Below are positions 1-31,675 of a DNA stretch of 64,000 bases, one piece after another. The translations under genes and the position numbers were made by a program. The stretch comes from Phytohabitans maris (GTDB taxonomy: Bacteria > Actinomycetota > Actinomycetes > Mycobacteriales > Micromonosporaceae): positions 124,001 through 188,000 of the forward strand of contig NZ_JAVHUY010000003.1 of assembly GCF_031085175.1 (NCBI RefSeq), read 5' to 3'. Below the pieces are notes generated by a model that ran no database searches, was not told the DNA's origin, and saw only the letters and a program-made list of their open reading frames with translations. Positions within the stretch are counted from its first letter, which is position 1. The number at the start of each line of letters is the position of its first letter.

Positions 1-1080
1 CAGCTCCCAGGCGTAGACGCCGCTGGGCAGGTCCGGCGGGAGCAGCGCCTCGCCCTGGAACCGCCAGCCGCAGTCGGTCATGTCGTCGCGGTGGAAGTGC
101 AGCGCGGCGTACTGCTCCGGGGCGAAGCGGAAGTCGGTGACGTCGCCGGTCCAGCCCGAGGAGCGGACCGCGCGCTGCGGATGGTGCACCGCCGTCCCGT
201 GCAGCCCGCCCGGGCCCACGTCGCGGACCAGAGCGGTGTCGCCGATCCCGGCCCGGCCGATCGCCGCCGCCAGGTCCCAGTGGGCCAGCAGCGCGCGATG
301 GCGGGCCAGCTCGGCCCGTGACCCGGTGGCGGTCGCGTCGGCGACCAGGACCGGGCTCTCGATCCGCCCGTCGTACGGCCGGATCGCGGCGCCGCCGGTG
401 CCGGCGCGGGCGCCGTTCTCGATGCCGGCGCGGGCCCAGAACAGCGGCCCGCTCGCGGGTACCGGTGCGGCCGCCAGGGTCGAGCGGGAGGTGCGGGGCG
501 GCTCCGGGCGGCGCACCGCGTGGTTGGACTCGAAGGTGCCGGCCGGCGCGACGGTCAGGGCCACGTCGCCGCCGGCCCGGCCGCCGACGGTCGCGGTCAG
601 CTCGTACCAGCAGCCGGCCTGGGCCACCGGCCCGGCGGTGACCTCGACCGGCCCCGCGGTGGTCGCGACCCGCAGCGTGAACCGCCCGCCGCCGTCGAGC
701 CCCACCGCCCAGCCCGAGCCCCGCTCCGGACGGCCGTGCGCGAGCAGGTCCTGGTCGCCGGCCCCGGGGCGGGTCGGCATCGCGGCGAGCGCCACCACCA
801 GCCCGTCCGGGCCCGCGCCGGGCAGGTCGTCGACCCGCACGTACGAGCCGACCGCCGTCTGCTGCTCGATCCCGTCGCCGCCGATCGGTGCGACGGCGCC
901 GACCCGCTCCTGGCGCCGCTCCACACCGGCCGCCGGGATGGCCAGCGCCCGCAGGCGGACCAGCTCGGCGCGCCATCGGGCGGCCGTGGTGCTGACCGCC
1001 AGGCGGACGGTGTCACCGGGGCGGTAGGAGACCCGGTCGCAGTAGCCCAGGACCCCGGGCGGGACCAGGCGCCCGGTCAC
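1..1080 (-). CDS. N,N-dimethylformamidase-like large (beta) subunit, partial
   Basis: This is the N-terminal 360 residues of a protein that continues beyond the left edge. The reverse strand is open from a GTG at 1080. Its start (LVPPGVLGYCDRVSYRPGDTV) matches the opening of N,N-dimethylformamidase beta subunits, which typically read GYAD..S..PGETV. The beta-rich middle (for example ENGARAGTGGAAIRPYDGRI) fits the lectin-like part of that family. The family hydrolyses N-substituted formamides to formate and an amine, and large subunits are about 750 residues, so roughly half is missing. The GTG start overlaps the stop of the small-subunit gene by 4 nt (GTGA), implying translational coupling. 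The exact substrate cannot be read from sequence, and a relative acting on another N-alkyl amide is possible. Confidence 0.8.
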   Translation of the reverse strand, partial: MTGRLVPPGVLGYCDRVSYRPGDTVRLAVSTTAARWRAELVRLRALAIPAAGVERRQERVGAVAPIGGDGIEQQTAVGSYVRVDDLPGAGPDGLVVALAAMPTRPGAGDQDLLAHGRPERGSGWAVGLDGGGRFTLRVATTAGPVEVTAGPVAQAGCWYELTATVGGRAGGDVALTVAPAGTFESNHAVRRPEPPRTSRSTLAAAPVPASGPLFWARAGIENGARAGTGGAAIRPYDGRIESPVLVADATATGSRAELARHRALLAHWDLAAAIGRAGIGDTALVRDVGPGGLHGTAVHHPQRAVRSSGWTGDVTDFRFAPEQYAALHFHRDDMTDCGWRFQGEALLPPDLPSGVYAWEL

Positions 1081-1412
1081 CAGGTCACGCCGTAGTCGCG
1101 CAGCCGGTGGACCAGCACGGCGTGCTCGGCCGCGTCGCGGGTGGCGTGGCGCGCGCCGTCGAGCAGGCGCGGGGCCCCGCCGCGGACCGGCGGCCGGACG
1201 CCGACCGCGAACCCGCCGGGCGTGCGGACGATGAGATAGCGCGGCTTGTCCGGGTCGGGGTTGCGGCGCACGAAGTCCATGACCTCGACCAGGTCCCGCG
1301 AGTACGGGCCGGTGGGGCGGGCCGCCGCCTCCGCCATCAGCGCCGCCGTCACCAGCGGCCGGACCCGGTTCTCCAGGATCCATTCGTCCTGTGTGGACAG
1401 TACCACGGTCAC
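1077..1412 (-). CDS. N,N-dimethylformamidase-like small (alpha) subunit
   Basis: A protein of 111 residues. I chose the GTG at 1412 because a strong ribosome site (GGAGGAGAGGC) lies just upstream; an upstream ATG at 1469 would add residues that look non-coding. Size and position match the small alpha subunit of dimethylformamidase, which is about 130 residues and is encoded directly before the large subunit. Visible features are an N-terminal amphipathic helix (DEWILENRVRPLVTAALMAE), a central YLIVRTPGGFAVGV strand pair and a C-terminal helix. No catalytic motif is expected in this subunit. It lies 81 nt downstream of the glutamine-synthetase-like gene. That gap contains two copies of GCGCACCGGAAGGC in the transcribed strand. 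Confidence 0.7.
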   Translation of the reverse strand: MTVVLSTQDEWILENRVRPLVTAALMAEAAARPTGPYSRDLVEVMDFVRRNPDPDKPRYLIVRTPGGFAVGVRPPVRGGAPRLLDGARHATRDAAEHAVLVHRLRDYGVTW

Positions 1413-1493
1413 GCCTCTCCTCCCGATCCCGGCGCCGCGGCCTTCCGGTGCGCCGCCGCTTTCCCGCACCGCGCCGCCTTCCGGTGCGCGGCC

Positions 1494-3020
1494 TCAGAAC
1501 ATGCCGAAGTACTCGCGCTGCTCCCAGTCCGAGACGTGCAGCAGGTAGCGCTCGAACTCGGCCCGCTTCAGGTGCGCGTACCAGTCGACCACGACGTCGC
1601 CGAGCGCCTCGCGGAAGGTCGCGTCGGACTCCAGCGCCGCCACGGACTCGCCGAGCGAGCGGGGCAGCCGGGGCGCCGACGCCTCGTACGGCGCGGTCGT
1701 CGGCGGGCGCAGGGTCAGCCGCCGGGTGATGCCGTCGAGGCCGCTGACCGCCTGCGCGGCGATGTACAGGTACGGGTTGGCCGCCGGCTCGCCGGAGCGG
1801 TTCTCCAGCCGGGTGGCCGGGTCGCCGGGACCGCCGACCACGCGCACCATGGCGCCCTTGTTGTCCACGCCCCAGGCGATCCGGTCCGGGGCCAGCGAGT
1901 ACGGCTGGTACCGCTTGTACCCGTTGACGGTCGGCGTCGTGAACGCGGCCGCGGCGGTGGCGTGCCGCAGGAGCCCCTCCAGGTACGAGCGGCCGGTGAC
2001 CGACAGCGGCTCGGTGTCCGCGACGCCGGGCACGAACGCGGCGCGGCCGGTGCGCAGGTCGGTCAGCGACTGGTGCAGGTGCCACCCGGTGGACGCCGTC
2101 TCGGCTCCCTGCGGCCGGGACATGAACGTCGCGTGGTAGCCGTGCCGGCGGGCGATCTGCCGGACCGCGCTGCGCCCCACCAGCACCGCGTCCGCGGTCA
2201 CCGCCGCGTCGGCCGCCGCCATGGTCAGTTCGAGCTGGCTGGGTCCGAACTCCAGCTCGATCGAGCGCAGCGGCAGGTCGAGCGAGGTCAGCCCGGTGTA
2301 GAGCGCCTGCACCAGCTCGTCCAGGCCGTCCAGCGTCTCCTCGTGCAGCAGCTGGGACCCGGCCGTGGTCGGGCCGGCGACCGGAGCCACACCGGGCGCG
2401 CCGGGGCGGCCGACCCGGTCGCCGGCGAGCCCCTCGCCGGTGGCGCGGAAGACGTGGAACTCCAGCTCCGCGCCGACGGTCATCCGGTACCCCCGCTGGG
2501 CGAGCGCGCCCAGCTGCTTGCGCAGCAGGCCGCGGGTGCAGAACGGCACCGGCGAGCCGTCCGGGAAGCGCACGTCGCACAGCACCCACCCGGTGCGCCG
2601 GGCCCACGGCACGACCCGGAAGGAGGTCGGGTCCGGGACGAGCACGATGTCGCCGGCCCCGGAGAAACCCGCCACGCCCACCTTCGGGTCGGCCGCGAAC
2701 ACCGGGTACACCGACTTGCCGGAGGTGTCCTTGAGCAGCAGCGAGCTCGGCGCGGTGAGGCCGGAGCGCATGGCCGCGGCGACCGCCGACCGGGCGATGG
2801 TCTTGCCGCGGAGGATGCCGTGCTGGTCGGCGAAGCCGAAGCGGACCATCTCGATCCCCAGCTCGTCGATCACCCGGCGCATCTGGGCCGCGGCGGCGTA
2901 CTGCGGGTCGCTCCACAGGTCGTGCCGGTCGACGAAGCCGCCCCGGTCCTTGTCCAGCATCGGGCGGGCGCTGGCCCCGCCGCCGCCCTCGGCGACGTCG
3001 CGCTCGTCGACGTTACGCAT
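1494..3020 (-). CDS. Glutamine synthetase family protein (probable gamma-glutamyl ligase)
   Basis: A protein of 508 residues of the glutamine synthetase superfamily. It carries the GAELEFH metal/glutamate motif, a GWHLHQSL motif matching the ATP/metal site of GlnA, and an ENR-containing C-terminal signature followed by ANPYLYIAA. It is longer and more divergent than housekeeping GlnA and sits in a catabolic operon. It resembles GlnA-like enzymes that gamma-glutamylate amines (ethanolamine, polyamines, isopropylamine, aniline) rather than ammonia. The ATG overlaps the end of the Rieske gene by 8 nt, so the two are translationally coupled. Inference: it ligates glutamate to an amine that is then oxidised or deamidated by neighbours. 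FluG-like or nitrogen-sensing roles are less likely. Confidence 0.85.
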   Translation of the reverse strand: MRNVDERDVAEGGGGASARPMLDKDRGGFVDRHDLWSDPQYAAAAQMRRVIDELGIEMVRFGFADQHGILRGKTIARSAVAAAMRSGLTAPSSLLLKDTSGKSVYPVFAADPKVGVAGFSGAGDIVLVPDPTSFRVVPWARRTGWVLCDVRFPDGSPVPFCTRGLLRKQLGALAQRGYRMTVGAELEFHVFRATGEGLAGDRVGRPGAPGVAPVAGPTTAGSQLLHEETLDGLDELVQALYTGLTSLDLPLRSIELEFGPSQLELTMAAADAAVTADAVLVGRSAVRQIARRHGYHATFMSRPQGAETASTGWHLHQSLTDLRTGRAAFVPGVADTEPLSVTGRSYLEGLLRHATAAAAFTTPTVNGYKRYQPYSLAPDRIAWGVDNKGAMVRVVGGPGDPATRLENRSGEPAANPYLYIAAQAVSGLDGITRRLTLRPPTTAPYEASAPRLPRSLGESVAALESDATFREALGDVVVDWYAHLKRAEFERYLLHVSDWEQREYFGMF

Positions 3021-4341
3021 CGGCCGGCTCCGGCCGGGTCCGATGCCAGGGCGAGGCGCGCCGCCGCTCGGCCTCCTTCTCCCGCCAGCGCTCCTGCCAC
3101 CCGTCGCTGGCGGCGACCAGGTCGACGGCGTGCGGACCGACGAACCGGGCCGCCTCGGCCTCGTCCGCCGGGTGCGCGGGGAGTGTGCCGCCGGAGTGGA
3201 ACGCGTCGATCGCGCGCAGCAGCAGCCGGCGGTTGGCGGTGATGGCGCGGTCGGAGACGCCGAGCCGCTCCACCGTCCGGTCCTGGATCGGGCCCATGCT
3301 CTCCACCGCCCACTGGTCGTGGACGTTGATGTCCAACCCCATCCCGGTGTACGTGAGGTCGCGCTGCTCGACCGGGTCGAACCCCCAGTCGTTGGAGCGG
3401 TTGCGCAGCGGCCGGTAGTCGGGCAGGGAGACGCCTTCGAGCCGCTGGCGCAGCAGCGTCTCCTTGTCGGTCTTCTCGGCGAAGTCGTAGAAGATCATGT
3501 ACCAGTAGTGGTTTTCGTCGTCGATCGGGACGTGCCACTGGGTGAAGACCTTGGTGTTGCCGAACGGCACCACGAACGCGTTCGGAAACAGCAGGTTGGT
3601 CACCCGCACGTGCTTGATCTCCTCGGTGAGCTGGCGGACGGCGAAGACCCGCAGCCCGTGCTCGGCGCTCTCCACCTCGATGTCGGGCCGGTAGTGGTCG
3701 CCGACGAGCTTCGACAGCTTGGTGCCGGTGCCCTCCACCTCCTCGCTGAACTGCTGGCCGTACACGTCGCGGGGGTCCTCGCCGACGAACCGGTGCAGGA
3801 ACGAGACGTGGCTCGGGTCGATGCCGCCCTCCAGGCCCTGCAGCCAGTTGCACTCCCAGAGCCCCTTGAAGGCGAACGTGTACTCCTCCGGCGCGGTGAA
3901 GCAGTCGTACGCCGGGAAGGGTGGCGGGTCGCCGGCGCCCATGTAGGTGAAGACGATGCCGTTGCGCTCCACGCACGGGTAGCTGGCGATGCGGATCTTG
4001 TCCAGGAACCGGCTGTGCGGCGGCTCGGCCGGCTGCTCCACGCAGCGCCCCTCGGCGTTGTAGAGCCAGCCGTGGTAGAGGCAGCGCAGCCCGCCGTCCT
4101 CCAGCCGGCCGTAGGCGAGGTCGACGCCGCGGTGCGCGCAGAAGCGGCTGATCAGCCCCCACCCGCCGGCCCGGGCGAAGAGGACCAGATCCTCGCCGAG
4201 CAGCCGGATCGCCTTGACCGGGCGGTCGGTGGGCATCTCCGAGACCAGCGCGGCCGGCTGCCAGTAGGCGCGCATCAGCCCGCCCAGCGCGGTGCCGGGC
4301 CCGGTCCGGGTGAGCTTGTCGTTGTCGGCTCGTCGCAGCAC
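3013..4341 (-). CDS. Rieske non-heme iron oxygenase, alpha subunit
   Basis: A protein of 442 residues. The N-terminal Rieske domain shows C68-A-H70 and C87-L-Y-H90 (FCAHRG and CLYHGW), which ligate a [2Fe-2S] cluster. The catalytic domain contains D175-P-S-H178-x4-H183, typical of the mononuclear iron site and electron-transfer Asp of phthalate-dioxygenase-type enzymes. Such oxygenases hydroxylate aromatics or demethylate O- and N-methyl groups. No ferredoxin or reductase gene is adjacent, so electrons must come from elsewhere. The GTG start at 4341 has a CCGGAGG ribosome site 6 nt away. It is first in a leftward operon with the glutamine-synthetase-like ligase and the dimethylformamidase genes. 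Confidence 0.92.
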   Translation of the reverse strand: MLRRADNDKLTRTGPGTALGGLMRAYWQPAALVSEMPTDRPVKAIRLLGEDLVLFARAGGWGLISRFCAHRGVDLAYGRLEDGGLRCLYHGWLYNAEGRCVEQPAEPPHSRFLDKIRIASYPCVERNGIVFTYMGAGDPPPFPAYDCFTAPEEYTFAFKGLWECNWLQGLEGGIDPSHVSFLHRFVGEDPRDVYGQQFSEEVEGTGTKLSKLVGDHYRPDIEVESAEHGLRVFAVRQLTEEIKHVRVTNLLFPNAFVVPFGNTKVFTQWHVPIDDENHYWYMIFYDFAEKTDKETLLRQRLEGVSLPDYRPLRNRSNDWGFDPVEQRDLTYTGMGLDINVHDQWAVESMGPIQDRTVERLGVSDRAITANRRLLLRAIDAFHSGGTLPAHPADEAEAARFVGPHAVDLVAASDGWQERWREKEAERRRASPWHRTRPEPADA

Positions 4342-4363
4342 TGCCGCCTCCGGGGTCGCTTTG

Positions 4364-4434
4364 TGGATCCAATCTTAAGCATTACGGATCCCGCATGGAA
4401 GCGAACATACCCACACCAGGCTCAAGTGGGTCCA
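4364..4434. promoter_or_regulatory. GATC-core octamer array between the Rieske and gntR genes
   Basis: The divergent intergenic region holds TGGATCCA at 4364-4371, CGGATCCC at 4385-4392 and TGGGTCCA at 4427-4434. The spacing is 21 and 42 bp, or two and four helical turns. The same octamer family with the same spacing recurs upstream of three other leftward units in this island. The natural inference is an operator array for the adjacent FCD-GntR regulator, controlling both its own gene and the Rieske operon. Confidence 0.6.
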
Positions 4435-4519
4435 CATGGCCCGTACTCTGCTATCGTTGGGTGGCTATGCCGTCGTGTGGCTATACGGCTGTGCGGGGCG
4501 ACACGAGGAGAGTGGCGGC

Positions 4520-5248
4520 TTGACGATCGAGTCCGACGAGTTGGCGCCGGCGCGCAAGACGGGTGCGGCCCTCGTCGACGACCTGGCCGACCGGATTCGC
4601 AACCGCATCATGACCGGCGAGATCCCCATCGGGGCCCAGCTGCGCCAGGCGGAGCTGGCCAGCGACTTCGGCGTCTCCCGCACGCCGGTGCGGGAGGCGC
4701 TACGCCAGCTGCAGACCAGCGGCCTGATCGAGGTGCTGCCCAACCGGGGCGCCGTGGTCAGCGTCCCGGCCCCGTGGGACGTCCGCGAGGCGTACGAGGT
4801 GCGCGCCGAGCTGGAGGCGCTGGCCGCCGCGCGCGCGGTGCGCCGGATCACCCGCGACCAGATCGAGCAGCTGCGCGTGGCCAACCGGGAGATGTACGAC
4901 TACTCCCTGGCCCGCAGCACCGGCACCGCCCCCGACGAGCGCGACCACCGGCGCAGCAACGACCTGTTCCACACGCTGATCGCGAGCATCTCCGGCAACG
5001 CCCGGCTGGCCAAGGCGATCAACGACATCAACGAGACCTTTCCCCGCAACGTGTCGGCCCAGCTGATCGTCAACGACAGCCGCCACCGGGACGAAAACTT
5101 CCGGGAGCACGAGCGGATCCTGCAGGCCCTCGCCGACGGCGACGCCGAGCGGGCCGCCGCCGAGATGCGCCAGCACGTCGTCGACGCCGGTGAGCAGCTC
5201 GCCCGCTGGTACGAGCTGCGCTCCTCCACCGTCTTCCGCGGCGAGTAG
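4520..5248 (+). CDS. GntR family (FCD) transcriptional regulator
   Basis: A protein of 242 residues if translation begins at the TTG at 4520, which follows a GAGGAG ribosome site. An ATG at 4436 would add 28 residues encoded by what looks like promoter DNA. The winged helix (LRQAELASDFGVSRTPVREA, then a QTSGLIEVLPNRGAVV wing) is classic FadR/GntR. The all-alpha C-terminal part with spaced R, H and D residues fits the FCD ligand-binding domain. It is followed after 4 nt by an isochorismatase-like gene. Most FCD regulators are repressors released by a pathway metabolite, and repeated TGGATCCA-type octamers in this island are its probable targets. Confidence 0.92.
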   Translation: MTIESDELAPARKTGAALVDDLADRIRNRIMTGEIPIGAQLRQAELASDFGVSRTPVREALRQLQTSGLIEVLPNRGAVVSVPAPWDVREAYEVRAELEALAAARAVRRITRDQIEQLRVANREMYDYSLARSTGTAPDERDHRRSNDLFHTLIASISGNARLAKAINDINETFPRNVSAQLIVNDSRHRDENFREHERILQALADGDAERAAAEMRQHVVDAGEQLARWYELRSSTVFRGE

Positions 5249-5252
5249 CGGG

Positions 5253-5879
5253 ATGGGCACGCCCCTTCTGACGCCGCCCGCCGTGGTGGGCAACGCGGTG
5301 CTCCTCGTGGTCGACATCCAGGGCGGGGAGGTGCCCGACGACGAGTCCCGCTCGGAGATCGCCCAGATGGGCGGTCGCCGGGAGCGCGCCGCCCGGGTGG
5401 AGCGGCTCATCGACGCGTGCCGGGGGCACGGCGTCCCGGTGGTCTTCGTCCAGGAGGTGCACAAGCCCGGGCTGGTCGACATCGGCCGCGAGCTGGACGG
5501 CGCCGAGGGGCCGCACTGCGTCGAGGGCTGGCCGGAGACCGAGCTCGCCCCGTGGGTGCGGCCCCGCCCCGACGAGTTCCTGATCCGCAAGCGGCGCTAC
5601 TCGGCGTTCTTCGGCACCGAGCTGGAGATCGTGCTCAAGGCGTACAAGGCGGAGACGGTCCTGCTCATCGGCGGGCTGACCGACGTCTGCATCCATTACA
5701 CGGCGGTCGACGCGCACCAGCACGACTACCGGGTGCGGGTGCTGACCGACTGCGTGGGTGGCTCCTCCCGCGAGGCACACGACGCCGCGCTGCGGGCCGT
5801 CGAGTACCTGCAGCGCGACGCCCTGGTCACCAGCGCGCAGGTCTTCGACTGGCTCGCCGCGAAGAAGCCGGCCGCCTGA
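5253..5879 (+). CDS. Isochorismatase-family cysteine hydrolase
   Basis: A protein of 208 residues starting at ATG 5253, four bases after the gntR stop. The catalytic triad of the family is visible: D21 (VVDIQGG), K113 (LIRKRRYSAFFGT) and C146 (GGLTDVCIHYTAVDA), with the usual cis-peptide region before the Cys. The family includes N-carbamoylsarcosine amidase, nicotinamidase, biuret and ureidoacrylate amidohydrolases. In this context an amide or carbamoyl hydrolysis step is more plausible than isochorismate cleavage. It converges with the next gene, leaving only 2 nt between the two stop codons and no room for a terminator. Confidence 0.88.
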   Translation: MGTPLLTPPAVVGNAVLLVVDIQGGEVPDDESRSEIAQMGGRRERAARVERLIDACRGHGVPVVFVQEVHKPGLVDIGRELDGAEGPHCVEGWPETELAPWVRPRPDEFLIRKRRYSAFFGTELEIVLKAYKAETVLLIGGLTDVCIHYTAVDAHQHDYRVRVLTDCVGGSSREAHDAALRAVEYLQRDALVTSAQVFDWLAAKKPAA

Positions 5880-5881
5880 TC

Positions 5882-6892: not shown

Positions 6893-6900
6893 GACACTCC

Positions 6901-9974: not shown

Positions 9975-10054
9975 GCCCGTCCTCGCTTCGCCGCGGGCGG
10001 GCATGAGGCTCCACGCGCGCTGTGTTTGATGATTCGCTCGCTGCGCTCGCTCAT
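9971..10054 (-). repeat. MSER-type intergenic mini-ORF repeat, copy 1
   Basis: This 84-nt element encodes a 27-residue peptide beginning MSERSERIIKHSARG and ending CPPAAKRGRA. Its ATG overlaps the stop of the upstream aminotransferase-like gene (ATGA), and its own TGA overlaps the ATG of the flavin oxidase gene (ATGA). It therefore fills the gap with coupled translation on both sides. A second copy at 44378-44452 has the same architecture and shares the 16-mer TGCCCGCCCGCGGCGA. It is probably a dispersed repeat rather than a functional protein gene. Confidence 0.7.
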
Positions 10055-11301: not shown

Positions 11302-11328
11302 CGTCGACCGTTCCCCTGCCCGCGAACA

Positions 11329-11378
11329 TGGATCCAAGATAGCAGGATTGGATCCACAGTTCCCTTAGAATGGATACG
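11329..11378. promoter_or_regulatory. GATC-core octamer array upstream of the class V PLP enzyme operon
   Basis: TGGATCCA occurs at 11329-11336 and again at 11349-11356, with a third variant TGGATACG at 11371-11378. Spacing is 20 and 22 bp. The array fills the short gap between the aldehyde dehydrogenase stop (11381) and the PLP enzyme start, where the promoter of the leftward operon should lie. It is a probable binding site for the island's GntR protein. Confidence 0.6.
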
Positions 11379-11380
11379 TC

Positions 11381-12829: not shown

Positions 12830-12873
12830 CACGGTCCTTCCTCGACCTTCCTGGTCATCGGGCGGGGGCGCGG

Positions 12874-13875: not shown

Positions 13876-13903
13876 CGCCGCGGTCCAGGGGATGTGGCGG
13901 CCA

Positions 13904-14965: not shown

Positions 14966-15810
14966 GCGGTCGTCGCCTTTCGGGCGCGGCGCCGGGCGCG
15001 GGCGGCCCGGCGGTTGGAGTACAGGCTGAACGCACCCAGCAGCAGCACCGCGAGCATCGAGACGAGCGTCGAGGCGGCGGTCAGCTGGGGTGAGAGGGCT
15101 TCCTGGGACGCGTCGAGCATCTGCAGCGGGAGCGTCTTGACACCCACCGGGGCGAGGAAGACCGAGAGCACCACCTCGTCGAAGATCACGGCGAACGCGA
15201 ACACCGCGCCGGCGAGCATGTGCCCCGCGATCATGGGCAGGTCGATCCGCCAGACGATCAGCGGCCAGGAGGCGCCGAGCGTACTGGCCGCCGGGCGCAG
15301 CGCCGGGTCGGCCTGGCTCAGCCCGGAGGAGACCATGACGAAGACGTACGGCATGGCGAGCAGGGCCTCGCCCAGGATCAGCAGCGCGAGGTTGTCGCCC
15401 AGGGCGGCGACCTCGAGGTTGACCGAGTAGAGGCCGACGGCGTACGCCACCGGCGGGATGGCCATCGGGACGATGAAGAGGGTGCGGATCCACCGGCGCG
15501 CCGTCCGGGAGCGCAGCCGGGTCAGCGCCAGCGCGCCGAGGGTGCCGAGCACCACCGAGATGACGGTGCCGGCCGCCGACACCCGCAGGGAGACCTTGAA
15601 CGCGTCCGTCCACTGCGGGTCCTGGAGCACGTCGGAGTACCAGGTCGGGGAGAAGCCCTGCGGCGGGAAGATGATGAACGACGTCTCGGTCCAGCTGGTC
15701 GCCACGACCACCAGGAACGGTACGTAGAACAGCAGGCTGGTCAGCAGGGCGACGCCCAGCACGGGCAGCCGCCACCACCCGATGCCGCGCCGCAGCGGTG
15801 AGTCCACCAT
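14962..15810 (-). CDS. potC: ABC transporter permease, PotC-like
   Basis: A protein of 282 residues with about six hydrophobic segments, beginning around VLGVALLTSLLFYVPFLVVV. It has the EAA loop typical of binding-protein-dependent permeases (ASTLGASWPLIVWRIDLPM). It starts 1 nt after the stop of the PotB-like gene and overlaps the ATPase gene by 4 nt, so the three form a tight unit. Its C-terminal tail is unusually basic (NRRAARARRRARKATTA). It belongs to the polyamine/opine/iron branch of the family. Confidence 0.92.
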   Translation of the reverse strand: MVDSPLRRGIGWWRLPVLGVALLTSLLFYVPFLVVVATSWTETSFIIFPPQGFSPTWYSDVLQDPQWTDAFKVSLRVSAAGTVISVVLGTLGALALTRLRSRTARRWIRTLFIVPMAIPPVAYAVGLYSVNLEVAALGDNLALLILGEALLAMPYVFVMVSSGLSQADPALRPAASTLGASWPLIVWRIDLPMIAGHMLAGAVFAFAVIFDEVVLSVFLAPVGVKTLPLQMLDASQEALSPQLTAASTLVSMLAVLLLGAFSLYSNRRAARARRRARKATTA

Positions 15811-15811
15811 C

Positions 15812-16687
15812 TCAGCCCCACCGCTCGCTGACCTTGAAGAGCCGGTCGGCGACCAGGTAGATGGCGACCGTACCGCCGACGAGCAGCAGGCTCATGGCCG
15901 CGCCCACGTCGGCCCGGTTGGCGTTGTTGAGCTGGCCGTTGATGATCCCCGAGACGGTCATGTTGGACGGCCCACCCAGCAGCAGCGGGGTCACGTAGAA
16001 GCCCAGGCTCATCACGAAGACCAGGACGCCGGCGCTGATCATCGCCTGGCGGATCGCCGGCAGCACGACCGCGCCGAAGGTGAGCACCGGCCCGGCGCCG
16101 AAGACGGTGGCGGCGTTGAGCTGCTCGCGGTCGAGGCCGAGGATGGCGGCGAGGATGGGCAGTACGGCGAAGGGGAGCATCACCGCGATCATCGCCGGGT
16201 ACAGCGCCCCGGTGGTCTGGTAGATGTCGATCGGCTCGGTGCGCAGGTGCGCCTTCTCCAGCAGCCAGTAGAGCGCGCCGGTCGGCAGCTCCAGGAGCAT
16301 CCAGCCGATGGTCCGTACCATGATCGAAGTCCACAGGGAGATCAGCAGGCCCCCCATGAGCAGGGCCTTCAGCCACGCCGGCCCGATCGCGACGGCCAGC
16401 GCGTAGCAGGTGCCGATCAGCACCGTCGCCGCGGTGGCGACGGCCGCGAGCAGCAGCGTGCGCCCCACCGCGTCGACGAAGACGCTCATCCGGACCGACT
16501 CGGCGAAGGCGTTGCCCTCCCCGGACAGCGCCTGCCGCAGGAGCGCGGCGAGCGGTACGCCCAGCAGCAATGCGAAGAACGCGAGCGGCGGCCACAGCAG
16601 CCAACGCCGTTCGCCGGCGCCGTCCGGCGCACGGCCACGGCGCCCGGTGTCGGGAAGTGCCGCGGCGACGGCTTCCTCTACCGCCAT
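15812..16687 (-). CDS. potB: ABC transporter permease, PotB-like
   Basis: A protein of 291 residues with six predicted membrane segments, beginning near LLWPPLAFFALLLGVPLAALL. The EAA loop reads NAATVFGAGPVLTFGAVVLP. The ATG at 16687 has no clear ribosome site of its own and an in-frame stop lies just upstream. Translation is probably coupled to a short leader ORF (16678-16713) that does have a good site. No periplasmic binding-protein gene accompanies the importer within the window, although PotD-type transporters need one. Confidence 0.92.
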   Translation of the reverse strand: MAVEEAVAAALPDTGRRGRAPDGAGERRWLLWPPLAFFALLLGVPLAALLRQALSGEGNAFAESVRMSVFVDAVGRTLLLAAVATAATVLIGTCYALAVAIGPAWLKALLMGGLLISLWTSIMVRTIGWMLLELPTGALYWLLEKAHLRTEPIDIYQTTGALYPAMIAVMLPFAVLPILAAILGLDREQLNAATVFGAGPVLTFGAVVLPAIRQAMISAGVLVFVMSLGFYVTPLLLGGPSNMTVSGIINGQLNNANRADVGAAMSLLLVGGTVAIYLVADRLFKVSERWG

Positions 16688-16713
16688 CGGGACTCACTGC
16701 GCCGATCGGTCAT
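16678..16713 (-). CDS. Putative 11-codon leader ORF overlapping potB
   Basis: An ATG at 16713 follows a strong GGGAGGACAGG ribosome site and encodes MTDRRSESRWR before a TAG at 16680-16678. That stop is 8-10 nt inside the PotB-like gene, whose own ATG lacks a ribosome site. This is the usual layout for translational coupling. The peptide is arginine-rich and has no known homologue that I recognise. It could equally be a chance ORF that only happens to share the ribosome site. Confidence 0.35.
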   Translation of the reverse strand: MTDRRSESRWR

Positions 16714-16742
16714 CCTGTCCTCCCGCTCACCGAGGCCCTCAT

Positions 16743-16771
16743 TGGATCCAGGCTATTGATCCGTGGATCCC
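16743..16771. promoter_or_regulatory. GATC-core octamer array upstream of the importer operon
   Basis: TGGATCCA lies at 16743-16750 and TGGATCCC at 16764-16771, 21 bp apart, with a half-related TTGATCCG between them. They lie 56-84 nt upstream of the PotB-like start, where the operon promoter is expected. Sequence and spacing match the arrays at 4364, 11329 and 21445. Confidence 0.6.
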
Positions 16772-16824
16772 AAAAGCGTCGCACGGAGGTTGCCGGTGTG
16801 TAAACAGATCACGTTCACCCCTGG

Positions 16825-18243
16825 TCAGAGCGGCGGGCGCCGGCCGGCGTGGCCCAGTGCCCGTTCGATCGCCGCGCCGAGCGAGAGCAGCCGCCGGTCA
16901 CCTCGGTAGCGGCCGACGACCTGCAGCCCGACCGGCAGGCCCGCCGGCGTCCACCCGCCCGGCGTCACCAGCGCCGGGTGCCCGGTCGCCGTGATCCGGT
17001 TGGCCATCCGCTGCCAGCGGAAGTACCGGTCGTAGGCGACCCCGCCGACCGCCTCGACCCACTCCACCTCCACCGGCGGCGGCACCACCGGCGCGGCCGG
17101 CAGGACCAGCGCGTCGTGGTCGGCGAGCAGCCGGGCGGTGTCCCGAAACAGGTCGGTGCGCCGGGCGAGCGCCTCGGCCAGGTCGGCGGCCGTCGTGCGC
17201 CGCCCCTGCTCGACGTTGCGCAGGTAGTCCGGCCGGTAGCCGCCCGGGTCCGCGTCCACGTCGGACCGGCCGCCGGCGAAGAACTCGAACGTCTCGACGG
17301 TCTCCCACAGCCGGTCGGCGTGGGTGAAGTCCGGCTCCGCGTCGACCACGGTCGCGCCCGCGCGCACCAGGGCGGCACGGGCGGCCGCGTGCACCTGGCG
17401 TACCTCGGCGGAGACCTCCAGCCCGCCGGCGTCGGCGCTCCACGCCAGCCGTACCCGGGACAGGTCGACCGGCTCCAGGTCGGCGAGGGCGCCCGGATCC
17501 TCCACCCAGGACAGTGGCCAGCCCGGGTCGAGGCCGCTGATCGCGGAGAGCAGCAGCGCCGCGTCCGCGCAGTCGCGCCCCATCGGCCCGAGTACCGCGT
17601 GCGGGCTCCAGCCGTCGCCGCGCCGGCCGCTCGGCACCGTGCCCGGGGTGGGGCGCAGGCCGGCGACGTTGCAGAATGCCGCCGGGTACCGCAGGCTGCC
17701 GCCGGAGTCGGAGCCGTCGGCGATCGGCAGCATGCCGGCGGCCAAGGCGGCGGCCGCTCCCCCGCTGCTGCCGCCGGCATGCCGGGTCAGGTCCCAGGGC
17801 GTGACGGTGGTGCCGAACAGCGGGTTGAACGTCAGCGTCCCCAGGCCGTGCTCGGGGGTGTTGGTCTTGCCGATGATCAGCGCGCCGGCGGCGCGGAGCC
17901 GGGCGGCCAGCACGCTGTCCACTGTGGCCGGTGGGGCGCCGGCGTGGGCGGCCGAGCCGTGCGTGGTGGGAAAGCCGCGCACGTCCATCAGGTCCTTGAC
18001 CGCGGTCGGCAGGCCGTGCAGCGGCCCGAGCGCGTCGCCGCGGGCGGCGGCCCGGTCTGCCTCGTCGGCCAGGCGCAGCGCCGCGCTCGCCGGCAGCGGC
18101 GAGACCACCGCCCGGATCCGGTCGTTGACCTCCTCGATCCGGTCGAGGTGGGCGCGCATGACCTCCCGGGCGGAGAGCTCACGCCGGCGGATCGCGGCGG
18201 CCAGGTCGCGGGCCGACCACCAGTACAGCGGCTCGGCGGTCAC
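16825..18243 (-). CDS. Amidase signature family hydrolase
   Basis: A protein of 472 residues from GTG 18243, overlapping the previous stop by 4 nt (GTGA). The Ser-cisSer-Lys triad is complete: K83 (TAVKDL), cis-Ser S159 in HAGGSSGG and nucleophile S183 in SGGSLRYPA. The family hydrolyses a wide range of amides. It is the last gene of the gamma-glutamyltransferase / amidohydrolase / amidase unit. In context it may release ammonia or an amine from an amide intermediate, for instance a gamma-glutamylamide, but this is inference. Confidence 0.93.
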   Translation of the reverse strand: MTAEPLYWWSARDLAAAIRRRELSAREVMRAHLDRIEEVNDRIRAVVSPLPASAALRLADEADRAAARGDALGPLHGLPTAVKDLMDVRGFPTTHGSAAHAGAPPATVDSVLAARLRAAGALIIGKTNTPEHGLGTLTFNPLFGTTVTPWDLTRHAGGSSGGAAAALAAGMLPIADGSDSGGSLRYPAAFCNVAGLRPTPGTVPSGRRGDGWSPHAVLGPMGRDCADAALLLSAISGLDPGWPLSWVEDPGALADLEPVDLSRVRLAWSADAGGLEVSAEVRQVHAAARAALVRAGATVVDAEPDFTHADRLWETVETFEFFAGGRSDVDADPGGYRPDYLRNVEQGRRTTAADLAEALARRTDLFRDTARLLADHDALVLPAAPVVPPPVEVEWVEAVGGVAYDRYFRWQRMANRITATGHPALVTPGGWTPAGLPVGLQVVGRYRGDRRLLSLGAAIERALGHAGRRPPL

Positions 18244-19586
18244 GCGCCCGCCTCGTACACCGTACGGCCGCCGACCACCGTGCGGCGCACCCGCAGGGTG
18301 AGCAGCTCGCCGGGGGCGATGTCGAGGGGGTCCCGGTCGAACGCGACCCAGTCCGCGTACCGGCCGGGTGCGAGCGTGCCGCGCCGGTCGCCGGCGAAGG
18401 ACGCCACGGCCGCGGTCGCCGTGTACGCCGTCAGCGCCTCCGCCACCGTGATCGCCTCCCGTTCGTCGAGCGGCTCGGTGCGGCCGCGGACCCGGCGGGT
18501 GACCGCGGACCAGATCAGCTCGCGCGGGTCGAACGGGAAGAACGGACCGTCCGAGCCGAGCACGACCGCGACGCCGGCGTCGAGCCAGGAGCGCAGCGGG
18601 TTCATCGGCAGGGCGCTGGGCCCGAGCAGCTCCACCAGGCCGGCGCCGTTGCGCAGGACGATCGACGGCTGGGCGGCCAGCACGACGCCGAGCCGGGCGG
18701 CCAGCGCCATCGACTCGGGCTCGACCTCCAGGTATCCGTGGATGAGCTGCCACTGCCGCCCGGCGATGCCGTACCGGCGGTCGGCCGCGGCGAAACAGTC
18801 GAGCACCGCGGCGATCCCGGCGCCGCCGACCGCGTGCACGCCGACCGACCAGCCTTCGGCGGCGCAGTGGTCGACGAGCCGCTGGAACTCGGCGGTGGGG
18901 ATCCGCTGGTACCCGGTGGACCCGCTGTGCGGCCAGGGGGTGCGGCGCAGCGCCTGGCCCCTCATCGCCTCGCCGTCGAAGTAGACCTTGATTCCGCCGA
19001 CGCGCAGCAGGTCGTCGCCGAAGCCGGTGCGTGCGCCGATCCCGTTCAGCCGCTCGATCGCGCCATCGACGTCCGGGTGCGCGAGGTCGCCGACGTCCGG
19101 GTACGGCATCGCGACCACGCGCATGGTCAGCTCGCCGCGGGCCCGGCTCTCCTGGTACCCGCGCAGCTCGTCGGCGGTGGTCGCCGGGTCGATGATCCCG
19201 GTGAAGCCGAGCTGGTGCATCAGCGGCTGGACCAACCGCAGCGCGGCGGCCCGGTCGGCCAGGGTCGGCGGCTCCGGCCCCCAGCCCGGTTCGAAGCCCC
19301 GGTCCCGCATGGTCGCGATCACCAGGTCGAGGTCGTGCCGGCCGTACCCGAGGTCGTGAATGATCTTGAGGCCACCGCGCTGCATGTGCAGGTGGGTGTC
19401 GATGAGACCGGGCAGGATCGCCGCGTCGCCGAGATCCTCGACCGGCGTCCCGGGCGGTACGGCGGCGAGCACCTCGGCCCGGGACCCGACGGCGAGGATC
19501 CGGCCGGCTTCCACGGCCATCGCCTCGGCGAGCGGGCGGGCCGGGTCCATCGTGCGGATCCGCCCGGCGATCACGTGCGCGCTCAT
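18240..19586 (-). CDS. Amidohydrolase family protein (YtcJ-like)
   Basis: A protein of 448 residues from ATG 19586, overlapping the previous gene by 4 nt. It has the composite beta-sandwich / TIM-barrel layout of amidohydrolases: the N-terminal IAGRIRTMDP strands, then LPGLIDTHLHM with the metal HxH, HAVGGAG and IHGYLEV as further His ligands, and LGSDGPFFPFDP with the catalytic Asp. The closing RYADWVAFDRDPLDI is the usual C-terminal signature. Relatives act on cyclic amides, N-acyl compounds and imides. It sits between gamma-glutamyltransferase-like and amidase genes. Confidence 0.9.
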   Translation of the reverse strand: MSAHVIAGRIRTMDPARPLAEAMAVEAGRILAVGSRAEVLAAVPPGTPVEDLGDAAILPGLIDTHLHMQRGGLKIIHDLGYGRHDLDLVIATMRDRGFEPGWGPEPPTLADRAAALRLVQPLMHQLGFTGIIDPATTADELRGYQESRARGELTMRVVAMPYPDVGDLAHPDVDGAIERLNGIGARTGFGDDLLRVGGIKVYFDGEAMRGQALRRTPWPHSGSTGYQRIPTAEFQRLVDHCAAEGWSVGVHAVGGAGIAAVLDCFAAADRRYGIAGRQWQLIHGYLEVEPESMALAARLGVVLAAQPSIVLRNGAGLVELLGPSALPMNPLRSWLDAGVAVVLGSDGPFFPFDPRELIWSAVTRRVRGRTEPLDEREAITVAEALTAYTATAAVASFAGDRRGTLAPGRYADWVAFDRDPLDIAPGELLTLRVRRTVVGGRTVYEAGA

Positions 19587-21292
19587 GACACGTACGCCGC
19601 GGCCGGCTGGCGCGGGTCGGCGGCCGCCTCCAGGAAGCCGGTGCCGGCGTTGCGGTAGATCGCCTCGACGGCCGCGGCGTCGCGGGTGAAGGGCGGCCAG
19701 GCGCGCACGTCGTGGCCCTTGGCGCGCAGCGCGTCGGCGGTGCCGGCCGGAAACCGGTCCTCCAGGAAGACCCGGGACGGCAGGTAGTCGAACGGGGCGA
19801 ACGAGTTGGGGAAGCTCCACGTGGAGAAGCGGGGCGCGTTGACCGCCTCCTGCAGCGGCAGTCCGAAGTGGAAGGTGTTCAGGAAGACCTGGAGCATCGC
19901 CTGCACCTGCATGTCGCCGCCGGGGCAGCCGAACGGCAGCACCGACCCGTCGTCGCGGACCGCGATCGCCGGGTTGGGGGTCAGCCGGGGCCGCTTGCCG
20001 GGCGCGACGCCGGAGGGGTGGGCCGGGTCGGGCCGGGACTGCATGCCGCGCAGCGAGGGCACGAACCCGGTCCCGGGAATGACCGGGGAGGAGGAGGCGC
20101 CGTCCGACGGCGTCGCGGAGAACGCGTTGCCCCAGGCGTCGACGACGCAGACGTACGAGGTCGCGCCCTCGCCCACGACCGGCAGCTCGTCGTAGTCCTT
20201 CGGCTCGGGCAGCGGCTGCGGTACGCCGAAGACGAGGTCCGGCAGCCCGGGGTGGGCGCGCTCGGCGTCGATCCGGCCGGCCCGCGCCGCCGCGTGCGCG
20301 TCCGAGACGAGCCGGGCCACGTCGACGTCGACGAAGGCCGGGTCGCCGTAAAGGTGTTCGCGGTCGCTGAAGACTCCCTTGAGCGCCTCGACGACCAGGT
20401 GCACGTACGCCGGCGAGTTGTGCGCCAGCCCGTCCAGGCCGTACGCCTCCAGGGTCCGCAGGGCCTGGGCGAGCGCCGGCCCCTGCGACCAGGGACCGCA
20501 GGTCATGACCTCGAAGTCGCGCCAGCGCACGGTCACCACCGGCTCGTACCGGCAGCGGAAGCCGGCCAGGTCCGCGGCGGTCAGGTAGCCGCCGTGCTCC
20601 CGGTGGTAGGCCACGATCCGCTCGGCCAGCTCCCCATCGTAGAAGACCGCCCGCGCCGCCTCCAGCCCCGCCTCGCGGCTGCCGGCGCGGGCGGCCTCGG
20701 CGTCGGCCATGAGCTGGATGCTGCGGGCCAGGTCGGCCTGGACGAACCGCTCCCCCACCCGGGGCGGGCGGCCGCCGGGCAGGTAGATCGCCTCGTTCGC
20801 CGGCCAGTTGCGGTAGCCGCGCTGCCGCGCCGTGATCCCCTCGACCAGCAGCGGGTGCGCCGCGAAGCCGTCCCGGGCGAGCCGGATCGCGGCCGCGGCG
20901 ACCCGGCCGAAGGTCATCGTGCCGTGGTCGCGCAGCGCGGTGATCCACGCGTCGGGAGCCGCCGGTACCACGGTGCGCAGCAGGCCGCTCGGGATGACGC
21001 CGCCGTGCTCGCGCAGGAACAGGTCGGCCGGGATCCCCGCCGGCCACACGCCGAGACCGTCGATGCTGACGGTGGTACCGTCCGCCAGCCGGATCATGAT
21101 CGGCGCGACCCCGGCGAAGTTGACCTCGTCCGCGTGGAGCACGGCCAGAGCCATGCCGGCGCAGCAGCCCGCGTCGACCGCGTTTCCGCCCGCCTCCAGG
21201 ATCGCCAGGGCCGCGGAGCTGGCCAGGTAGTGACCCGACGAGACCGCGTGCCGGGTGCCGAGGACGGTCGGGTTGGGGACGTGCCAGCTCAC
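19583..21292 (-). CDS. ggt: Gamma-glutamyltransferase family protein
   Basis: A protein of 569 residues from GTG 21292, with AAGGAG upstream. It has the Ntn-hydrolase organisation of the family: a large N-terminal part, then the autocleavage threonine at T378 in GEGATSYVCVVD, where the usual TTHYSVVD reads TSYVCVVD. The downstream GNAFSATPSDG and FGCPGGDMQVQAMLQV blocks are the glutamate-site and oxyanion regions. No signal peptide is visible, so it may act in the cytoplasm. If the glutamine-synthetase-like ligase makes a gamma-glutamylamide, this enzyme could remove or transfer the glutamyl group. Members acting on other acyl amides are also known. Confidence 0.9.
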   Translation of the reverse strand: MSWHVPNPTVLGTRHAVSSGHYLASSAALAILEAGGNAVDAGCCAGMALAVLHADEVNFAGVAPIMIRLADGTTVSIDGLGVWPAGIPADLFLREHGGVIPSGLLRTVVPAAPDAWITALRDHGTMTFGRVAAAAIRLARDGFAAHPLLVEGITARQRGYRNWPANEAIYLPGGRPPRVGERFVQADLARSIQLMADAEAARAGSREAGLEAARAVFYDGELAERIVAYHREHGGYLTAADLAGFRCRYEPVVTVRWRDFEVMTCGPWSQGPALAQALRTLEAYGLDGLAHNSPAYVHLVVEALKGVFSDREHLYGDPAFVDVDVARLVSDAHAAARAGRIDAERAHPGLPDLVFGVPQPLPEPKDYDELPVVGEGATSYVCVVDAWGNAFSATPSDGASSSPVIPGTGFVPSLRGMQSRPDPAHPSGVAPGKRPRLTPNPAIAVRDDGSVLPFGCPGGDMQVQAMLQVFLNTFHFGLPLQEAVNAPRFSTWSFPNSFAPFDYLPSRVFLEDRFPAGTADALRAKGHDVRAWPPFTRDAAAVEAIYRNAGTGFLEAAADPRQPAAAYVS

Positions 21293-31672: not shown

Positions 31673-31675
31673 ACT

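What the first reader, a model, noticed from the sequence alone, without database searches (positions are those of the whole stretch)
1..21292. Unusual amine/amide catabolic island combining a formamidase, Rieske oxygenase, GS-like ligase and three oxidase routes
One regulon joins a dimethylformamidase-like enzyme, Rieske oxygenase, glutamine-synthetase-like ligase, isochorismatase-fold hydrolase, copper amine oxidase and sarcosine-oxidase-like flavoenzyme. It also includes a class V PLP enzyme, aldehyde dehydrogenase, gamma-glutamyltransferase-like protein, amidase, amidohydrolase and a polyamine-type importer. Each family is known, but I do not know of a described pathway with this set. The logic suggests uptake of an N-alkyl amide or polyamine, N-dealkylation, deformylation, oxidation to an aldehyde, then to an acid.
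Basis: inference. Interest (0 to 1): 0.75.

Follow-up and report, generated by a model that had tools for sequence, protein, structure and literature searches.

The report
Conserved actinobacterial amide-and-amine degradation regulon
A soil actinobacterium carries 22 enzyme, transport and control genes that look like one pathway for eating an unknown nitrogen-containing amide; much the same set, behind the same DNA switch, recurs in distant relatives, so it is probably an undescribed route worth testing.

Summary
Confirmed and enlarged. The island is about 28 kb and 22 genes, running 6.7 kb past the window's left edge. It is not a chance assortment. [quoted passage not shown] the 80th is cut by a contig end. 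Six extended clusters, chosen because their genomes hold the DMFase, keep 20-22 of 22 families although gene order is partly or largely shuffled. The set is one regulon: a palindrome, TTGGATCCAA, lies upstream of its transcription units. Of 29 sites (at most 1 mismatch) in the 9.87-Mb genome, 6 lie in the island, all between genes; in 44 related loci 131 of 134 are intergenic.
The GS-like protein groups with glutamyl-organic-amine synthetases (NpaA1, aniline type), suggesting ATP-driven gamma-glutamylation before Rieske oxygenation. Dimethylformamide is a doubtful substrate: related clusters lack the DMFase. The substrate is unknown. I found no description of this set in the open-access papers searched.

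The parts
1..1080 (-). DMFase large-subunit-like amidohydrolase (758 aa; continues left of the window to -1196)
   Evidence: Pfam DMFA2_C 275.9 bits; best PDB 6lvb DMFase 400 bits; iron ligands Y399, Y440, E521 and H519 kept
1077..1412 (-). small protein (111 aa) like the DMFase alpha subunit
   Evidence: aligns with DmfA1 of pAMI2 and the small protein beside a DMFase in G055; no Pfam or PDB match
1494..3020 (-). GS-like glutamyl-organic-amine synthetase (508 aa)
   Evidence: best PDB 8wwu NpaA1 428 bits, next 183; tree
3013..4341 (-). Rieske oxygenase, single-subunit LigXa/phthalate-dioxygenase type (442 aa)
   Evidence: Pfam Rieske + LigXa_C; C68xH70, C87xxH90, D175xxH178xxxxH183
4363..4372 (.). 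operator, divergent Rieske / GntR promoters
   Evidence: GTGGATCCAA, 1 mismatch
4520..5248 (+). GntR/FCD regulator (242 aa)
   Evidence: Pfam GntR + FCD
5283..5879 (+). isochorismatase-fold hydrolase
   Evidence: Pfam; weak biuret-hydrolase match, 66 bits, cut-off 370
5882..6892 (-). phosphotriesterase-family hydrolase PTE2, metal site complete
   Evidence: Pfam PTE; six ligands kept
6901..8841 (-). copper amine oxidase
   Evidence: NCBIfam primary-amine oxidase above cut-off; best PDB phenylethylamine oxidase 461 bits
8838..9974 (-). monomeric-sarcosine-oxidase-like flavoenzyme
   Evidence: Pfam DAO; PDB 7exs 197 bits
10051..11289 (-). class V PLP enzyme, EgtE-like; fused to the flavoenzyme in some relatives
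   Evidence: 48% identical to the PLP protein of the genome's own egt operon; fusion in 12 of 44 related loci
11328..11357 (.). paired operators upstream of the PLP enzyme
   Evidence: ATGGATCCAA at 11328 and TTGGATCCAC at 11348, 1 mismatch each
11381..12832 (-). aldehyde dehydrogenase
   Evidence: Pfam; nearest NCBIfam phenylacetaldehyde and betaine-aldehyde dehydrogenases, below cut-offs
12874..13875 (-). phosphotriesterase-family protein PTE1 lacking four of six metal ligands
   Evidence: Pfam 88.9 bits; ligand table
13904..14965 (-). ABC ATPase (PotA-like)
   Evidence: Pfam; NCBIfam potA 334 bits, cut-off 355.6
14962..15810 (-). ABC permease (nearest NCBIfam model PotC, far below cut-off)
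   Evidence: Pfam, NCBIfam
15812..16687 (-). second ABC permease
   Evidence: Pfam
16742..16772 (.). paired operators upstream of the permease
   Evidence: TTGGATCCAG (1 mismatch) at 16742 and GTGGATCCCA (2) at 16763
16825..18243 (-). amidase
   Evidence: Pfam 300 bits; GGSSGG motif
18240..19586 (-). Amidohydro_3 hydrolase
   Evidence: Pfam
19583..21292 (-). gamma-glutamyltranspeptidase-family protein
   Evidence: Pfam 330 bits; NCBIfam g_glut_trans 251.8 bits, below cut-off 357.85
21476..21485 (.). operator upstream of the GGT unit
   Evidence: TTGTATCCAA, 1 mismatch

Best explanation
The island is one catabolic regulon for an amide-bonded amine. Shown: 22 linked families, largely conserved together across several actinobacterial families, with a shared operator in front of their transcription units. 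Inferred: an ABC importer of the polyamine-type superfamily brings in a small amide. Cytosolic hydrolases (DMFase-like, amidase, two Amidohydro_3, PTE2, PTE3, isochorismatase-fold) strip acyl, formyl or carbamoyl groups. The freed amine is joined to glutamate by the GS-like synthetase at the cost of ATP. The gamma-glutamyl amide is then oxygenated by the Rieske enzyme, with electrons from a reductase that would have to be encoded elsewhere in this genome but lies in the cluster of many relatives. The GGT-family protein removes the glutamyl group where it is not lost on its own. Copper amine oxidase, the sarcosine-oxidase/PLP pair, GMC oxidoreductase and aldehyde dehydrogenase turn amine and alcohol carbons into acids. 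GntR/FCD represses the set by binding TTGGATCCAA, often in pairs, until a pathway acid is present.
For: Conserved set: GS-like gene directly after Rieske in 79 of 80 loci, the 80th cut by a contig end; all 22 families in S. radicis, J. endophytica and S. shenzhenensis, 20-21 in three others, with only 8-19 of 21 adjacencies kept (clusters chosen for having the DMFase). Regulon: 6 of 29 genome sites (at most 1 mismatch) in the island, 0.083 expected; in 7 relative clusters 44 of 44 sites intergenic, 40 of them inside the cluster span; in 44 loci 131 of 134 intergenic, in 79 kb against 807 kb of genes; a 20-22 bp pair in 18 of 34 GntR upstream regions. Glutamylation: best structure match NpaA1, 428 bits against 183 for the next; tree; Asp50' and flap Glu of true GS absent, as reported for NpaA1 (passages of PMC11335346). 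Proteobacterial relatives pair the same two genes with ferredoxin and FAD reductase. PLP enzyme and flavoenzyme fused in 12 of 44 loci. PTE-fold enzymes can be amide hydrolases: PTER, PMC11374699 (listing and start of abstract).
Against: No substrate, enzyme activity or expression was tested. The island has no reductase for the Rieske enzyme; the nearest homolog (48%) is on contig C34, which has no operator with at most 1 mismatch. No ring-cleavage enzyme is among the 22 genes, so an aromatic product would have to be finished elsewhere. Copper amine oxidase and the GS-like enzyme would compete for the same primary amine unless they act on different amino groups or in series. Nine of the 44 related loci show none of amine oxidase, PLP enzyme, sarcosine-oxidase-like or aldehyde dehydrogenase within the stretch held. 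The flap Glu is also missing in a GS paralog of the same genome (L122), so that loss is not specific. The best NCBIfam model of the GS-like protein is gamma-glutamylputrescine synthetase (237 bits, cut-off 650). The GGT family member could do something else. That this GntR protein binds the operator is inferred from position only.
Confidence: 0.7

Rival explanations
1. An aniline-type pathway: the true substrate is an aromatic amine released from an anilide or aminobenzoate-like amide, and the GS-like/Rieske pair converts it to a diol that feeds ring cleavage. The oxidases only trim side chains.
For: The GS-like protein is 43-45% identical to NpaA1 and the plasmid aniline-dioxygenase type. The Rieske protein matches phthalate-dioxygenase-type structures. 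Two proteobacterial relatives sit beside nitroreductase and DUF4863 genes. Position 201 of NpaA1, a pocket residue, is Leu in 40 of 40 actinobacterial rows.
Against: Aniline systems have a two-subunit Rieske and a glutamine amidotransferase (PMC11335346 passages); neither is in the island. Most actinobacterial loci also hold amine-oxidase and sarcosine-oxidase-type enzymes (32 and 31 of 44) that aniline degradation does not need. In the other Rieske-linked rows the pocket residue is different (Tyr in 13 of 16).
Confidence: 0.2
2. One reading: uptake of an N-alkylformamide or a polyamine, N-dealkylation by the Rieske enzyme, deformylation by the DMFase, then oxidation.
For: The DMFase iron site is intact; the importer's nearest NCBIfam models are spermidine/putrescine types; the best NCBIfam model of the GS-like protein is gamma-glutamylputrescine synthetase (237 bits).
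Against: The DMFase is absent from many genomes that share the core. Importer and synthetase scores all stay below the family cut-offs (355.6, 326, 582 and 650), and by structure match and tree the synthetase lies with NpaA1.
Confidence: 0.07
3. Not one linear pathway but a co-regulated nitrogen-scavenging set: several independent amide and amine hydrolase/oxidase activities switched on together by a common acid signal.
For: Many hydrolases of overlapping type; the hydrolases and importers differ between cluster types while the operator is kept.
Against: Physical linkage of about 20 genes survives rearrangement, the Rieske/GS pair is nearly invariant and the PLP and flavoenzymes are fused in 12 of 44 loci, all of which favour successive steps.
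Confidence: 0.15

Closest known systems
Aniline / 1-naphthylamine dioxygenase systems (AtdA, NpaA; GS-like + amidotransferase + two-subunit Rieske + reductase)
   Same: A GS-like glutamyl-amine synthetase encoded with a Rieske oxygenase; synthetase 43-45% identical and missing the same GS catalytic residues
   Different: Single-subunit LigXa-type Rieske, no amidotransferase, no adjacent reductase in the window, plus hydrolase, oxidase and transport genes under a GntR operator
Proteobacterial Rieske + GS-like + ferredoxin + FAD-reductase clusters (Cupriavidus, Methylobacterium, Polaromonas plasmids)
   Same: Rieske gene directly before a GS-like gene of the neighbouring branch of the tree
   Different: No amine oxidase, sarcosine-oxidase-like, class V PLP or PTE gene among the genes listed beside them (PLSDB tables are incomplete). 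The operator does not occur between genes in the 36 other loci (these plasmids were not scanned). I found no described function for them
Isopropylamine pathway of Pseudomonas KIE171 (recalled, and cited inside PMC11335346; the original paper is not held)
   Same: Logic: glutamylate an amine, oxidise it, remove glutamate, oxidise the product
   Different: Gene content could not be compared; different organism group
N,N-dimethylformamidase (DmfA1A2)
   Same: Large subunit with all iron ligands and a small-subunit-like partner
   Different: 33% identical to DmfA2 of pAMI2; sits in a multi-enzyme regulon
Ergothioneine C-S lyase EgtE
   Same: The PLP enzyme is 48% identical to the PLP protein of the egt operon in the same genome
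   Different: Not in an egt operon; paired or fused with a flavoenzyme; 146.5 bits against a cut-off of 400

Membership tests
Glutamyl-organic-amine synthetase (GoaS) | closer to NpaA1/AtdA1-type enzymes than to glutamine synthetases | tested here: met
   428 against 183 bits; 63-row branch with NpaA1 and the pTB30 enzyme, apart from four GS paralogs and G048's (those outer branches are long and the fork is drawn open)
Glutamyl-organic-amine synthetase (GoaS) | loss of Asp50' and the flap Glu of true GS | tested here: met
   alignment by eye against the genome's own GS (L123) and NpaA1; feature from passages of PMC11335346. The flap Glu is also missing in another GS paralog (L122), so this is weak evidence
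Glutamyl-organic-amine synthetase (GoaS) | ATP-dependent glutamylation of an amine, none of ammonia | not testable with these tools
   needs purified enzyme
Aniline dioxygenase system | two-subunit Rieske oxygenase (alpha and beta) | tested here: not met
   single LigXa_C-type protein; no beta subunit among the 22 genes
Aniline dioxygenase system | glutamine-amidotransferase-like gene in the cluster | tested here: not met
   none among the 22 genes; present in pTB30
Aniline dioxygenase system | reductase component in the cluster | tested here: not met
   absent in the window; present in 15 of 44 related loci; 48% homolog elsewhere in this genome
N,N-dimethylformamidase | iron site of two Tyr and one Glu, plus catalytic His | tested here: met
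   Y399, Y440, E521, H519 kept in 7 of 7 aligned rows; residue roles from PMC7686228 passages
N,N-dimethylformamidase | small alpha subunit | tested here: inconclusive
N,N-dimethylformamidase | hydrolysis of DMF | not testable with these tools
   needs assay
Monomeric sarcosine oxidase | FAD-linking Cys and carboxylate-binding Arg/Lys motifs (motifs recalled) | tested here: met
   ACLYTMT, TRMIRRAYPN and SGHGFKF in the window protein; but 178.8 bits against the soxA_mon cut-off of 479.65
EgtE | NCBIfam equivalog cut-off and place in an egt operon | tested here: not met
   146.5 against 400 bits; no egt genes in the island. The genome's own egt-operon enzyme also scores only 186.5, so the cut-off alone is not decisive
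Phosphotriesterase family hydrolase | binuclear metal site (six ligands) | tested here: not met
   PTE1: at least four of six lost in 9 of 9 rows. PTE2 (7 of 7) and PTE3 (6 of 6) meet it
Spermidine/putrescine importer PotABCD | family score cut-offs | tested here: not met
   potA 334 of 355.6 bits, PotC 107.9 of 326; PotD 19.9 of 582
GntR-controlled regulon | shared operator before its transcription units | tested here: met
   binding itself not tested

The most novel reading that the evidence does not exclude
This is an undescribed, widespread actinobacterial pathway in which a second kind of glutamylation-gated Rieske oxygenase (single-subunit, phthalate-dioxygenase lineage) opens an amide-linked, possibly N-formylated amine from plants or soil. 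Formamide removal is done by interchangeable, unrelated enzymes (iron DMFase in some clusters, creatininase or cyclase-family enzymes in others). A metal-less PTE relative is kept as a non-hydrolytic partner, and one GntR operator holds the whole set together across many families.
Probability: 0.4. Interest if true: 0.78.

Novelty: new variant of a known kind. Interest (0 to 1): 0.62.

Why it matters
It turns a list of familiar enzymes into a testable unit: a defined gene set, its likely switch (TTGGATCCAA) and its likely first step. A conserved set of this size for which I found no described function suggests that a common natural or man-made nitrogen compound is being overlooked. The GS-like/Rieske pair extends the aniline-dioxygenase logic to a different oxygenase lineage, useful for amine bioremediation and for naming many poorly annotated genes.

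Tried and rejected
Chance assortment: rejected. Dimethylformamide as the core substrate: weakened. Kynurenine, melatonin-type or N-methyltryptophan catabolism (prompted by cyclase-family genes, the PLP fold and the N-methyltryptophan oxidase score of 250.5 against a cut-off of 257): considered, no direct evidence, left as speculation. Creatinine/hydantoin route: same. Homarine as a lead: nothing in the listing. An empty site for the island: in the five genus relatives the left-flank gene tested has no match (E 1e-40) and the right-flank gene only a 34% homolog in G005 (E limit 1e-60), so no insertion boundary could be defined. Other genome-wide operator sites: 20 of the 23 outside the island were examined; 12 of the 20 fall between called genes and 8 inside, and none of the nearby called genes matched the cluster (gene calls on 3-kb stretches are poor), so I cannot say whether any is real. 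Structure prediction of the small subunit: not possible. Literature: searches showed no description of this set; these cover open-licence PubMed Central papers only, and the longer listings were capped.

The operator was first seen in a dyad search on the GntR upstream regions, so the 35-of-35 count (at most 2 mismatches; 1.95 expected in shuffles, 1.82 in random stretches of the same loci) is not independent of its discovery. The genome-wide count, the window units and the intergenic/coding contrast are largely independent tests. At up to 2 mismatches the plain count over the window is not above chance (8 found, 5.64 expected). The formamidase exchange was noticed after the fact and rests on few lineages.
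Full report
WHAT IS THERE. The window is G000:C23:124001-188000. A codon-model gene caller that I trained on the region, with Pfam and NCBIfam, gives 22 genes from about -6674 to 21292 in window coordinates. In transcription order on the minus strand: GGT-family protein, Amidohydro_3 (AmhB), amidase, two permeases, PotA-like ATPase, PTE1, aldehyde dehydrogenase, class V PLP enzyme, sarcosine-oxidase-like flavoenzyme, copper amine oxidase, PTE2; then Rieske oxygenase, GS-like protein, a 111-aa protein, DMFase large subunit; then, left of the window, a solute-binding protein, Amidohydro_3 (AmhA), a GMC oxidoreductase and PTE3. A GntR/FCD regulator and an isochorismatase-fold hydrolase lie on the plus strand in the middle.

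THE ORGANISM. G003, same genus as the window's genome, is Phytohabitans suffuscus NBRC 105367: its contig length, 10,148,719, equals that of NZ_AP022871.1. It carries the whole block in the same order at about 87-99% identity. The genes on either side of its block do not match the 104 kb held around the window, apart from one 25% GMC hit. Several of its genes (SoxA-like, aldehyde dehydrogenase, amidase, permease) were called in pieces, which I did not pursue.

CO-OCCURRENCE. In 61 genomes (own plus 60 relatives), Rieske orthologs (588 bits or more; next 263) and GS-like orthologs (67% identity or more; next 45%) occur in exactly the same five: G000, G003, G005, G011, G028 (the G005 Rieske match holds one in-frame stop). 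A scan of named genomes with an alignment of three Rieske proteins gave 296 relatives, of which the best 80 were kept. In 79 of these 80 the next gene on the same strand is the GS-like gene, with a median gap of 1 base and a few long gaps, up to 1,440; in the 80th (L092) a GS-like fragment runs into the contig end. In the 44 loci of the actinobacterial group (Rieske 72-96% identical), with 10-kb flanks of which 10 are cut by contig ends, I count at 40% identity or more: GntR 34, amine oxidase 32, PLP enzyme 32, sarcosine-oxidase-like 31, aldehyde dehydrogenase 30, PTE2 17, PTE3 17, isochorismatase 17, GMC 12, DMFase 5; nine loci show none of amine oxidase, PLP enzyme, SoxA-like or aldehyde dehydrogenase. 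In the 36 other loci (Rieske 51-59%), mostly proteobacterial, only the Rieske/GS pair is regularly shared.

FULL CLUSTERS. I checked 19 of the genomes behind these loci for the DMFase: 9 have a match at E of 1e-30 or less, 8 of them at 60% identity or more. I then extended six clusters that hold it, so this is a selected set; a seventh, Jiangella anatolica, is split over two contigs. Streptomyces radicis, Jiangella endophytica and Streptomyces shenzhenensis hold 22 of 22 families, Micromonospora haikouensis 21, M. endophytica 20, Acrocarpospora pleiomorpha 20 (at least 44% identity). Only 11, 8, 19, 18, 18 and 10 of the 21 window adjacencies are kept, respectively. Linkage that survives such shuffling argues for joint function.

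ONE REGULON. A dyad search upstream of the GntR gene found TTGGATCCAA. All 35 GntR upstream regions (window and 34 loci) have it with at most 2 mismatches (1.95 expected in shuffles, 1.82 in random stretches of the same loci) and 30 with at most 1 (0.10 and 1.22). The later tests are stronger. In the 9.87-Mb genome there are 29 sites with at most 1 mismatch (reversed control pattern: 20) and 6 of them fall in the 28-kb island, where 0.083 are expected (binomial P about 2.5e-10). All 6 are between genes, although only 1,389 bases of the island are intergenic. They stand before GGT, before the permease, before the PLP enzyme (a pair 20 bp apart), between Rieske and GntR, and before the binding protein (position -1246). 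At up to 2 mismatches the plain window count is not above chance (8 against 5.64); the signal is in the 1-mismatch sites and their places. In seven other clusters (P. suffuscus and the six extended ones) 44 of 44 sites are intergenic, 40 of them inside the cluster span, and all seven have one before the binding protein next to the DMFase. In the 44 loci 131 of 134 sites lie in 79 kb of intergenic DNA and 3 in 807 kb of genes; in the 36 other loci 0 lie between genes and 3 inside. Sites of at most 2 mismatches lie 21 bp apart, two helical turns, 17 times, and 18 of 34 GntR regions have a 20-22 bp pair. The second cluster type (G011, G028, G005) has 11 sites, all intergenic, 8 of them exact. Outside the island, 12 of 20 sites examined in the window's genome are also between called genes, so a wider regulon cannot be excluded.

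THE FIRST STEP. The GS-like protein matches NpaA1, the 1-naphthylamine glutamylating enzyme, at 428 bits; the next structure scores 183. Its best NCBIfam model is gamma-glutamylputrescine synthetase, far below cut-off (237 of 650). On plasmids it is 52% identical to proteins encoded beside Rieske genes in Methylobacterium and Cupriavidus, 45% to the aniline-dioxygenase-type enzyme of pTB30 and 43% to NpaA1. A quick tree puts the actinobacterial proteins in one branch (41 rows, SH-aLRT 100), beside the proteobacterial Rieske-linked ones, with the aniline types outside (the outgroup branches are long, so the root is unsure). The flap Glu and Asp50' of true glutamine synthetase are missing, as reported for NpaA1 (passages of PMC11335346); the flap Glu is missing in another GS paralog of this genome too. 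Position 201 of NpaA1, a pocket residue whose change to Leu raised naphthylamine activity in that paper (passage), is Leu in 40 of 40 actinobacterial rows and Tyr in 13 of 16 other Rieske-linked rows. The Rieske protein has its cluster ligands and the D-x2-H-x4-H iron motif and is of the phthalate-dioxygenase type (LigXa_C; 226-256 bits to 9ina, 7fjl and 7fhr; the identity of those PDB entries beyond their printed names is recalled). Proteobacterial relatives supply ferredoxin and FAD reductase beside the pair; actinobacterial relatives often have a one-piece reductase in the cluster (15 of 44). The window has neither; a 48% homolog lies on contig C34.

HYDROLASES. The DMFase-like protein keeps the iron ligands Y399, Y440 and E521 and the catalytic H519 in 7 of 7 aligned rows (roles from PMC7686228 passages). 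Its neighbour aligns with the DMFase alpha subunit. In the second cluster type the DMFase is missing and creatininase-, cyclase- and Amidohydro_2-family genes appear. Among genomes in which both were looked for, ten have the DMFase and no cyclase- or creatininase-family gene in the cluster stretch I hold, and seven (L037, L038, L040, L064, G005, G011, G028) have the cyclase-family gene and no DMFase at E of 1e-30 or less. Against a simple exchange: five of the 19 genomes (L039, L049, L053, L059, L074) show neither, L051 shows only a 34% creatininase-family gene, L056 has only a 39% DMFase, the two Jiangella clusters have both the DMFase and Amidohydro_2, four more loci with the cyclase-family gene (L066, L067, L069, L070) were not checked for the DMFase, and the stretches held differ in length. 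Replacement of one formamide hydrolase by another is therefore a suggestion only. PTE-fold proteins can be amide hydrolases, as PTER is (PMC11374699: listing and start of abstract).

UNEXPECTED DETAIL. PTE1 has lost four of the six metal ligands in 9 of 9 rows (Glu to Ile or Leu, His to Arg, His to Asn, Asp to Ser; two rows lose a fifth), while PTE2 (7 of 7) and PTE3 (6 of 6) from these clusters keep all six. A protein conserved at 45-84% without its metal site suggests a new role, for example a partner subunit.

OXIDASES. The copper amine oxidase is closest to phenylethylamine oxidase among solved structures (461 bits) and the aldehyde dehydrogenase to phenylacetaldehyde and betaine-aldehyde models, below their cut-offs. 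This hints at an arylalkyl amine but does not prove it. The PLP enzyme is 48% identical to the one in the genome's own ergothioneine operon and is fused to the flavoenzyme in 12 of 44 loci and in G005, G011 and G028, so these two probably act in succession.

VERDICT. A real, coherent, apparently undescribed catabolic regulon built from known families. The general mechanism is supported by comparison; the substrate and every enzymatic step remain to be tested.

Noticed in passing
window 12874-13875 and relatives' PTE1: Phosphotriesterase-family protein conserved in the clusters but lacking at least four of six metal ligands in 9 of 9 rows.
   Followed up: partly
window 24322-28199: Two adjoining minus-strand genes: a WD40-repeat protein (729 aa) and an NPHP3/AAA-type NTPase (563 aa), with lower coding scores than the island; resembles a STAND-type signalling pair.
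   Followed up: no
window 30428-36964: ROK-family gene followed by an Opp-type ABC transporter with two ATPase domains in one protein; the last gene of this run (35510-36964) has only a 34% match in the genus.
   Followed up: no
window 41596-41690 and 53813-53893: ARAGORN calls tRNA-Val and tRNA-Ala inside called protein genes; Rfam finds nothing in the window at gathering scores, so both are probably false.
   Followed up: no
L020 and neighbours (Phytohabitans suffuscus cluster): SoxA-like, aldehyde dehydrogenase, amidase and permease genes are called in pieces or short in this one-contig genome; sequencing errors or decay, not examined.
   Followed up: no
L034, L035, L074 (end of the Micromonospora clusters): DUF1989 genes (two shown by Pfam in L034) and an amidase-family gene next to the cluster, of the kind associated with urea or guanidine breakdown (recalled).
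   Followed up: no
L136:1470-3199 and relatives: A YjgF/Rid-type protein and an MFS transporter recur beside several of the clusters; the window genome has a 43% homolog of the Rid-type protein about 20 kb left of the island.
   Followed up: partly
L031 (G048) 4117374-4121742: A DMFase-like gene lies close to a different GS-like gene and an aldehyde dehydrogenase in an otherwise unrelated cluster, with no operator of at most 1 mismatch in the 40 kb held.
   Followed up: no
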